From: Synergistaceae bacterium
GTDB lineage: Bacteria; Synergistota; Synergistia; Synergistales; Aminobacteriaceae
NCBI GenBank assembly: GCA_031272145.1
Contig: JAISUL010000078.1
Span: 1 to 55,538, forward strand
Reading direction: 5' to 3'
DNA length: 55,538 nucleotides
A program made the translations under genes and the position numbers. Positions within the stretch are counted from its first letter, which is position 1; every line of letters begins with the position of its first letter. Positions 24,468 through 26,843 of the stretch are shown here, in pieces. The notes below the pieces were generated by a model. The model did not search any database. It was not told where the DNA came from and was given only the letters and a program-made list of their open reading frames with translations.

Positions 24468-24508
24468 CCTGAGGAGCGACGAGGAACAAGAATCCTAGCG
24501 AGACGGCC

Positions 24509-24535
24509 TTGATTTTTTGGTTTGTGTGGTATAAT
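24509..24535 (+). promoter_or_regulatory. Extended -10 promoter of RNA unit A
   Basis: TTGATT (24509-24514), 15-base spacer and TATAAT (24530-24535) preceded by TGG, making an extended -10 (TGnTATAAT). Transcription should begin near 24542. Confidence 0.65.
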
Positions 24536-24541
24536 ACATGT

Positions 24542-24618
24542 AGACATGCGTGAGGTCACCCCCTTCCGCTCTCGGCGTCGCTCAACGCTGAGGCACACAG
24601 GAAGGGGGCTCTTTTTTA
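24542..24618 (+). ncRNA. Putative short RNA A, promoter to terminator
   Basis: From the predicted start near 24542, only about 75 bases separate the promoter from an intrinsic terminator. The outer stem is CCCCCTTCC/GGAAGGGGG, the inner stem CTCGGCGT/ACGCTGAG, and CTCTTTTTT follows. The 5' end (24543-24565) is complementary to the ribosome binding site and ATG of the small ORF at 24773, with 22 of 23 positions pairing. A related unit lies at 25062-25176. It could be a stand-alone RNA or an attenuating leader. Confidence 0.5.
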
Positions 24619-24777
24619 TCCCGTTGATCGTACAATATACGTACCGTCTCAGCCGAGGCATGGTGAGGGACCGCTTTCCGCGCCGAACTACGTGCGCGGC
24701 AACGGCTACGCCGGAGCCGGTCGTCCATGGGAGCGGGGCGACACCTTTTTGTGAAAGGAGGTGACCTCACGCATGTC
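24543..24777. repeat. Inverted repeats of 23 bp flanking the RNA A region
   Basis: Arms 24543-24565 and 24755-24777 match at 22 of 23 positions, including an unbroken run of 18 (GACATGCGTGAGGTCACC). The right arm covers the ribosome binding site and start codon of the 34-codon ORF. Confidence 0.8.
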
Positions 24778-24877
24778 CATCAAAAGGTTGAGCGGCCTAA
24801 GTTGCATGTTTTTTTTGCGACTGGGACGATGGCTGAAAGCTGGTTTTAGCCTGACGGTCACGTTCCGCCCGCGGTAG
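24773..24877 (+). CDS. Very small basic ORF with strong ribosome binding site (34 codons)
   Basis: AAAGGAGGTGA lies 8 bases before an ATG at 24773. The 34-residue product begins MSIKRLSGLSCMFFLRLGRW and ends GFSLTVTFRPR. It is strongly basic with a hydrophobic middle and no recognised family. The start region is the right arm of the inverted repeat and is complementary to the 5' end of RNA A, so translation could be blocked by base pairing. A hairpin terminator follows at 24894-24935. Alternatives are a leader peptide or a chance ORF. Confidence 0.4.
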   Translation: MSIKRLSGLSCMFFLRLGRWLKAGFSLTVTFRPR

Positions 24878-24893
24878 CACCGGCAGGTTAGGC

Positions 24894-24935
24894 AACGGGA
24901 GGGGGCGTCGGTGTAAAAACCGGCGCTCCCGTTTT
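24894..24935 (+). terminator. Terminator-like hairpin after the 34-codon ORF
   Basis: Outer stem ACGGGAG/CTCCCGT and an inner CGGT/ACCG stem are followed by TTTTCC. Confidence 0.6.
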
Positions 24936-25061
24936 CCTGCCATCACCACTCACTGCTTGTTCCTCGTATCGCACGCGCCCACAGCGAGGATAGGACGAAC
25001 AGGCCAGCAGGAGGCTGCGGCATAGAAGAGCAAGAAGGGGCAAGAAACTAGCTACACCGTC

Positions 25062-25089
25062 TTGATTTTTGGGGAGTTATGGGCATAAT
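25062..25089 (+). promoter_or_regulatory. Promoter of RNA unit B
   Basis: TTGATT (25062-25067), 16-base spacer and CATAAT (25084-25089). The -35 and flanking CTTGATTTTT match unit A. Confidence 0.55.
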
Positions 25090-25095
25090 AGAGAT

Positions 25096-25176
25096 ACAGG
25101 CATTTTGGGGTACCCCCTTCTCCGCCCTCAGCGACGCTCAACGCTGGGGCTCTTGCGGGAAGGGGGCTCTTTTTTA
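25096..25176 (+). ncRNA. Putative short RNA B, related to RNA A
   Basis: Same layout as unit A: short transcript ending in an intrinsic terminator with outer stem CCCCCTTC/GAAGGGGG, inner stem CCTCAGCG/CGCTGGGG and CTCTTTTTT. The inner stem differs from that of A at positions that keep pairing (for example G-U changed to A-U), which supports a selected RNA structure. Similarity to A continues for about 30 bases past the terminator (GTGCAATATTC versus GTACAATATAC). The anti-ribosome-binding-site stretch of A is not conserved here. Confidence 0.5.
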
Positions 25177-25363
25177 CCCTTGTATCCAGCGTGCAATATT
25201 CCCGACGGAGCTGGGGAAAAGCGACGCGCGAGTAAAAACACACCCCCAAATACGTCCGCGTATGATAAAATCAAACTAGGAAAGGCGTCTGTGGAAGTCA
25301 GAGGCTTCCGAATCAAAAGCAGATGAGCTTTTCCTGAGCCCCCTGAGCCGGGAGGTGATTAGC

Positions 25364-25486
25364 TTGCGAAAGCGAAAACCTAAGAAGGGCAAGGGGGGCG
25401 AAAAGCTCGTTGCTATCGAGTTATCCTTCGCCCCCTTTGATCGGACGGTGCTGAAACTTCGTTACCTCAAACGCACCAAAGATTGA
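25364..25486 (+). CDS. Small basic ORF with strong ribosome binding site (40 codons)
   Basis: GGGAGGTGAT lies just before TTG at 25364. The 40-residue product starts MRKRKPKKGKGGEKLVAIEL and continues FAPFDRTVLKLRYLKRTKD: very basic ends and an amphipathic middle. No family is recognised. Its codons also hold a long hairpin (about 25388-25438: AAGGGGGGCGAA with TTCGCCCCCTT, inner CTCG/CGAG), so the RNA itself may matter more than the peptide. It stands in the same relative place as the 34-codon ORF of unit A. Confidence 0.4.
   Translation: MRKRKPKKGKGGEKLVAIELSFAPFDRTVLKLRYLKRTKD

Positions 25487-25604: not shown

Positions 25605-26843
<1,239 letters not shown>

What the first reader, a model, noticed from the sequence alone, without database searches (positions are those of the whole stretch)
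24509..24935. Short terminated RNA whose 5' end is complementary to the ribosome binding site of a downstream micro-ORF
An extended -10 promoter drives a transcript of about 75 bases ending in a strong intrinsic terminator. The RNA's first about 23 bases (24543-24565) are complementary at 22 of 23 positions to 24755-24777, which holds AAAGGAGGTGA-to-ATG of a 34-codon ORF for a basic, partly hydrophobic peptide. A second terminator follows. Seen directly: the repeats, promoter, terminators and ORF. Inference: the RNA (in trans, or in cis after readthrough) could mask translation of the peptide, as in type I toxin-antitoxin systems or attenuation. The same arm also forms the 5' side of the terminator stem, so pairing states would compete.
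Basis: partly seen in the sequence, partly recalled or inferred. Interest (0 to 1): 0.72.

Follow-up and report, generated by a model that had tools for sequence, protein, structure and literature searches.

The report
Likely toxin peptide with antisense RNA
A gut-type bacterium of the phylum Synergistota carries a short RNA that matches, base for base, the translation start of a neighbouring gene for a tiny charged peptide; eleven diverged copies in five genomes all keep their own private match, as expected of a new family of RNA-silenced toxin genes.

Summary
A promoter, an approximately 77-nt terminated RNA, a second promoter, and an mRNA with its own terminator encode a 34-aa basic peptide; the RNA's 5' tail (24543-24565) pairs 22/23 with the SD-to-ATG region (24755-24777). 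Covariance and peptide searches of 188 Synergistota genomes found 11 complete units in five Synergistaceae genomes. In all 11 the sRNA tail matches its own start region better than any of the other ten (permutation 0/100000), although the tails are unrelated in sequence. Eleven further sRNAs have lost, or lie without, a peptide gene; no peptide gene was found without its sRNA. Up to four sRNAs stand in tandem. Both units of one genome lie on contigs with plasmid or phage-type genes. Best reading: a new family of type I toxin-antitoxin-like modules, co-directional in layout and working like par(pAD1). Transcription, pairing and toxicity are inferred, not shown.

The parts
24509..24535 (+). promoter P1 of the sRNA (TTGATT, 15 nt, TGg-TATAAT extended -10)
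   Evidence: sequence; same promoter type in the other sRNA copies
24542..24618 (+). predicted sRNA (antitoxin-like), about 77 nt, ends in intrinsic terminator
   Evidence: RNA model R3 match 24508-24625, E 2.5e-23 (model built partly on it)
24543..24565 (+). 5' tail of the sRNA, antisense to the SD/start codon region of the peptide mRNA
   Evidence: cognate-specific in 11 of 11 units
24578..24583 (+). apical loop of the sRNA hairpin (UCGCUC), second contact with the mRNA
   Evidence: weak in this unit: 6 bp with one G-U; strong in G004a/b, G035b, G035d, G006, G010
24559..24618 (+). terminator hairpin and T-run of the sRNA
   Evidence: fold, consensus fold with two-sided changes
24631..24636 (+). 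-10 box (TACAAT) of second promoter P2 for the peptide mRNA
   Evidence: a -10-like box just after the sRNA T-run in all 11 units
24643..24935 (+). predicted peptide mRNA (5'UTR, ORF, terminator)
   Evidence: alignment with the C5 paralogue begins at ACCGT
24720..24742 (+). 5'UTR hairpin whose loop side (GAGCGG 24731-24736) faces the sRNA loop
24742..24763 (+). hairpin CACCTTTTT-GTGA-AAGGAGGTG that hides the Shine-Dalgarno sequence
   Evidence: fold
24755..24777 (+). antisense target: SD, spacer, ATG
24773..24877 (+). ORF for the 34-aa peptide MSIKRLSGLSCMFFLRLGRWLKAGFSLTVTFRPR
   Evidence: pN/pS 0.43 against the C5 copy
24901..24930 (+). terminator of the peptide mRNA
25061..25183 (+). second, solo copy of the sRNA with promoter; tail reads in reverse complement as AAGGGGGTACCCCAAAATG; no target in the assembly

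Best explanation
The locus is one member of a new Synergistaceae family of type I toxin-antitoxin-like modules. A constitutive-looking promoter makes a short sRNA. Its terminator loop first touches ('kisses') the loop of a hairpin in the 5'UTR of the peptide mRNA, and its single-stranded 5' tail then zips over the SD, spacer and start codon, blocking translation of a 29-42 aa, mostly cationic amphipathic peptide that is probably toxic to the cell. An SD-hiding hairpin in the mRNA keeps it silent until the sRNA arrives. sRNA and mRNA are made one after the other from the same strand, so a read-through transcript silences itself. Shown from sequence: the parts, their conservation, and the covarying cognate-specific complementarity at both contacts. 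Inferred: transcription, pairing in the cell, repression, toxicity.
For: (1) The sRNA tail matches its own mRNA start best in 11/11 units; mean score 18.7 cognate versus 6.8 non-cognate; 0/100000 permutations. (2) Loop-loop complementarity at the same 5'UTR place (about -35 to -46) in 11/11, 0/100000 permutations, with compensatory changes such as CCCGCAAA/UUUGCGGG to CCCGUAAA/UUUACGGG. (3) Constant layout: sRNA terminator to start codon 143-161 nt in all 11; -10-like P2 box in all. (4) Peptide family with a conserved core; pN/pS 0.23-0.43 in four of five pairs. (5) Asymmetry of loss: 11 sRNAs without a peptide gene, 0 peptide genes without sRNA. (6) Both G004 units lie on contigs with plasmid or phage-type genes: a Rep_3 initiator upstream of one; primase-helicase and tyrosine recombinase with the other. 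(7) The same mechanics are established for par(pAD1) (PMC7472228).
Against: No expression or toxicity data. One peptide (G010) has net charge -1 and none is a clear transmembrane segment; the structure model is low confidence (pLDDT 68). G035c/d have pN/pS about 1.15 because the divergence sits in the pairing region. The loop contact is weak in the window's own unit and in G035a. The window's genome carries a solo sRNA whose target is absent, so at least some copies have no use today.
Confidence: 0.74

Rival explanations
1. Antisense-controlled small peptide that is not a toxin: for example a membrane-active regulator or a secreted bacteriocin-like peptide whose dose is limited by the sRNA.
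For: The RNA evidence proves nothing about what the peptide does; the peptides are mostly cationic and amphipathic.
Against: Loss is one-sided: the sRNA stays, the peptide goes. Units on plasmid-type contigs and specificity that diverges within one genome fit an addiction module better.
Confidence: 0.17
2. Cis-acting leader: the 5' arm works mainly inside one read-through transcript, as an attenuator or a safety lock, and a free sRNA matters little.
For: Same strand, fixed 143-161 nt spacing; read-through RNA could fold arm to SD.
Against: The sRNA ends in a strong terminator and the mRNA has its own promoter; solo sRNAs and tandem arrays keep promoters and terminators with no mRNA beside them.
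Confidence: 0.06
3. Mobile-element debris: inverted repeats of a small transposable element (MITE) that happen to lie over an RBS.
For: Several copies in one genome and tandem duplications.
Against: The arms differ between units yet stay complementary, the contact point is always the RBS or start codons, a second loop-loop contact covaries, and duplicated blocks do not end at the arms.
Confidence: 0.02

Closest known systems
par of plasmid pAD1 (Fst / RNA I / RNA II), Fst/Ldr family
   Same: Kissing contact between sRNA terminator loop and toxin RNA, then pairing over SD and start codon; intramolecular stem-loop hides the SD; small charged peptide; plasmid addiction (PMC7472228).
   Different: par has convergent promoters, a shared bidirectional terminator and overlapping RNAs; here sRNA and mRNA are tandem on one strand with separate terminators, the kissing partner is a 5'UTR hairpin, and the peptide is unrelated (no Pfam, NCBIfam or PHROG hit).
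zorO/orzO, zorP/orzP
   Same: sRNA with antisense stretch to an unlinked RNA, private pairing between duplicated loci that prevents crosstalk, frequent antitoxin-only loci (PMC11264685).
   Different: Divergent genes, pairing far upstream in the 5'UTR and not at the start site (PMC4147584).
dinQ / agrA, agrB
   Same: Two tandem sRNAs with 5' antisense tails (25 and 30 of 31 nt), one of them degenerate (PMC3567139).
   Different: Transcribed opposite to dinQ; the target is not the start site; two sRNAs, not three or four with different tails.
tisB/istR-1
   Same: Short sRNA with antisense stretch against the toxin mRNA plus terminator.
   Different: Divergent layout; [quoted passage not shown]

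Membership tests
type I toxin-antitoxin system | small peptide gene (under about 60 codons) with its own RBS | tested here: met
   29-42 aa in 11 units, SD present
type I toxin-antitoxin system | small RNA complementary to the peptide mRNA | tested here: met
   cognate-specific, covarying complementarity at two sites; physical pairing not tested
type I toxin-antitoxin system | peptide toxic on overexpression, sRNA neutralises | not testable with these tools
   needs an experiment
type I toxin-antitoxin system | hydrophobic membrane-spanning toxin | tested here: inconclusive
   mostly cationic amphipathic, max 15-residue Kyte-Doolittle mean 0.94-1.88; model pLDDT 68
type I toxin-antitoxin system | primary mRNA translationally locked by structure at the SD | tested here: met
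   SD at least partly paired in the local fold of all 11; prediction only
Fst/Ldr (par) family | convergent overlapping RNAs with shared bidirectional terminator | tested here: not met
   both RNAs on the + strand with separate terminators
Fst/Ldr (par) family | Fst/Ldr peptide homology | tested here: not met
   no Pfam or NCBIfam hit at E up to 1 for the five peptides scanned
IstR/Orz/AgrB group (divergent sRNA, 5'UTR target away from start) | divergent genes, target away from start codon | tested here: not met
   same strand, target at SD and start codon
any Rfam 15 family | covariance model match at gathering score | tested here: not met
   two sub-threshold matches only, E 0.51 and 2.2

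The most novel reading that the evidence does not exclude
The tandem sRNA arrays (three in G006, four in a Fretibacterium MAG) are kept as libraries of antitoxins with different tails, each able to silence the peptide of a different module, so that the cell tolerates loss or arrival of plasmids and elements carrying such modules: an RNA-based anti-addiction memory.
Probability: 0.15. Interest if true: 0.85.

Novelty: new variant of a known kind. Interest (0 to 1): 0.63.

Why it matters
A 2025 paper states that type I systems were known only from Proteobacteria, Firmicutes and Tenericutes before its own first cyanobacterial case (PMC12390103); this would add Synergistota. The units give a natural covariation data set for two-site antisense recognition: paralogues in one genome with nearly identical peptide bodies but fully different recognition parts (G035c/d: CDS body 99% identical, sRNA tail 35%, 5'UTR 39%). 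That makes it testable how orthogonal RNA specificity evolves and why orphan antitoxins accumulate in arrays.

Tried and rejected
Two-sequence peptide model over 188 genomes: beyond the own genome, the six weak hits inspected were chance. DNA search in 101 relatives: only chance hits outside the own genome. 5'UTR model R2: nothing convincing beyond the own units. Hairpin pattern TCGTC-N-GCGGGGCGA: mostly coding-region chance hits; only known units recovered. IMG/VR, phage and plasmid collections: nothing. Pfam, NCBIfam, PHROGs, PADLOC, PDB: nothing. Targets for the solo sRNAs of the own genome: no match with up to 3 mismatches apart from themselves and one chance-level 3-mismatch site. Weak R3 hits in G015, G017, G061 (second site) and G004:C45 show no unit. 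AlphaFold of the peptide: low confidence, not used. An attenuator for a downstream gene was rejected because no gene follows before the terminator.

Full report
What is there. The window holds, on the + strand: promoter P1 (TATAAT 24530-24535 with TGG before it), a predicted RNA of about 77 nt ending in a strong terminator (to 24618), a second -10 box (24631-24636), a 5'UTR, an SD inside a hairpin, ATG at 24773, a 34-codon ORF and a terminator at 24901-24930. The sRNA's first 23 nt (24543-24565) are complementary at 22 positions to 24755-24777. No other SD-preceded small ORF in the window comes near this score, and none of about 1,013 such ORFs in control loci does.

Copies in the same genome. 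A diverged complete copy lies on contig C5 (621-1058, minus strand): the peptide is MYIFRRLNSLSCALVVRLGRWLRASLSLTVTFRPR (65% identical), and the sRNA tail and RBS have changed together (AAAGGAGATGACCCAG-TATGTAT against its own tail). Two further copies have only the sRNA: window 25061-25183 and C5 2470-2589, the latter with the peptide gene deleted between sRNA and final terminator.

Relatives. A covariance model of the four sRNAs found related loci in other Synergistaceae. A model of nine sRNAs and a peptide profile of eleven then defined the family: 11 complete units in 5 of 188 Synergistota genomes, namely own A and C; G006; G035 with five, matched to a Fretibacterium sp. rumen-type MAG, Tb.RUG.11; G010, matched to Synergistaceae Th196P3bin106; and G004 with two, matched to Synergistales bacterium MS502-76 (names). 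The peptides share M-x-x-x-L-x-S-L-x-F-x-L-x-L-K-L-G-R-W/L-V/I and match no family library.

Contact 1, tail to start site. Scoring all 11 sRNA tails against all 11 start regions puts the cognate mRNA first for every sRNA, by score and by duplex energy; cognate mean 18.7 and -45 kcal/mol, non-cognate 6.8 and -24.7; no permutation in 100000 reaches the observed sum. The footprint varies: SD to ATG in own A, G035a and G035d; ATG and the first eight codons in G035b and G004a/b.

Contact 2, loop to loop. The apical loop of the sRNA terminator hairpin is complementary over 5-8 nt to a 5'UTR hairpin about 35-46 nt upstream of the start codon: CCCGCAAA/UUUGCGGG (G004a), CCCGUAAA/UUUACGGG (G004b), CCCGCGAA/UUCGCGGG (G035b), CCGUAAU/AUUACGG (G035d), UCCGCUAG/CUAGCGGG (G006), UCCGCUAA/UUAGCGGG (G010); 0/100000 permutations. 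The window's own unit has a weaker version (UCGCUC/GAGCGG). Several target loops carry a YUNR-like sequence, the U-turn motif described for the toxin RNA of par(pAD1); this resemblance was read by eye, not tested.

Coding and silencing. pN/pS is 0.23-0.43 in four of five pairs, though RNA-level constraint acts on the same bases. The SD is at least partly paired in the local fold of all 11 mRNAs. The distance from sRNA terminator to start codon is 143-161 nt in all.

Orphans and arrays. Eleven sRNAs have no peptide gene of their own (own B and D, two in G006, three in G035:C135, one each in G035:C262, G010:C58, G040:C50, G061:C20); a twelfth (G012) is cut by a contig end. Six of the twelve tails read in reverse complement as a strict SD-ATG, against 3.6% of random 46-mers, so they look like antisense RNAs to start sites no longer present. 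G006 has three and G035:C135 four sRNAs in a row before one peptide gene, the last of them cognate. No peptide gene lacked its sRNA. G035c and G035d share 99% of the CDS body but 35% of the tail and 39% of the 5'UTR: recognition parts change while the peptide stays.

Context. Both G004 units lie on contigs with plasmid or phage-type genes: a Rep_3 initiator upstream in one; a primase-helicase (DnaB_C, Toprim) and a tyrosine recombinase in the other. Circularity was not shown. The others, including the window's, look chromosomal.

Interpretation. This works like par(pAD1): kissing loop, start-site pairing, SD-hiding hairpin. It is not a member of that family: convergent layout, shared terminator and Fst homology fail. 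It also differs from the divergent tisB, zor and dinQ systems in layout and in target site. I file it as a new variant of type I toxin-antitoxin-like systems, with toxicity untested.

Limits. The genomes are largely draft assemblies; promoters and ends are predicted; only a fraction of public species is held; the loop windows and local-alignment settings were chosen after seeing some of the units, although the permutation tests compare cognate with non-cognate pairs under the same settings.

Noticed in passing
L158 (G004:C75) 1-430: A family-type sRNA hairpin (R3 partial match, E 2e-5) whose 5' side is a perfect 26-nt complement of the RBS and start of a Cas2/VapD-like gene (PF09827); the contig begins with a 54-nt repeat of that gene, so it may be an assembly join or a real RNA-controlled VapD.
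   Followed up: partly
window 26370-26460 and L021 6663-6705: Dinucleotide-type repeats encoding (RE)n runs inside a glycosyltransferase gene and a second gene on contig C5; possible slippage (phase-variation) sites.
   Followed up: no
L021 446-2643: Tandem partial duplications on contig C5 carrying the sRNA unit together with pieces of an AAA-ATPase-like gene.
   Followed up: no
L163 (G061:C20) 327-438: A solo sRNA of the family type in another family of the order (E 0.003) whose tail reads as AAGGAGGGGTCCCTCATG in reverse complement; suggests the family may reach beyond Synergistaceae.
   Followed up: partly
window 25355-25486: A 43-codon GTG ORF (or shorter from an inner TTG) with GGGAGGTGATTAGC before it, downstream of the solo sRNA; basic product; not complementary to the solo tail.
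   Followed up: no
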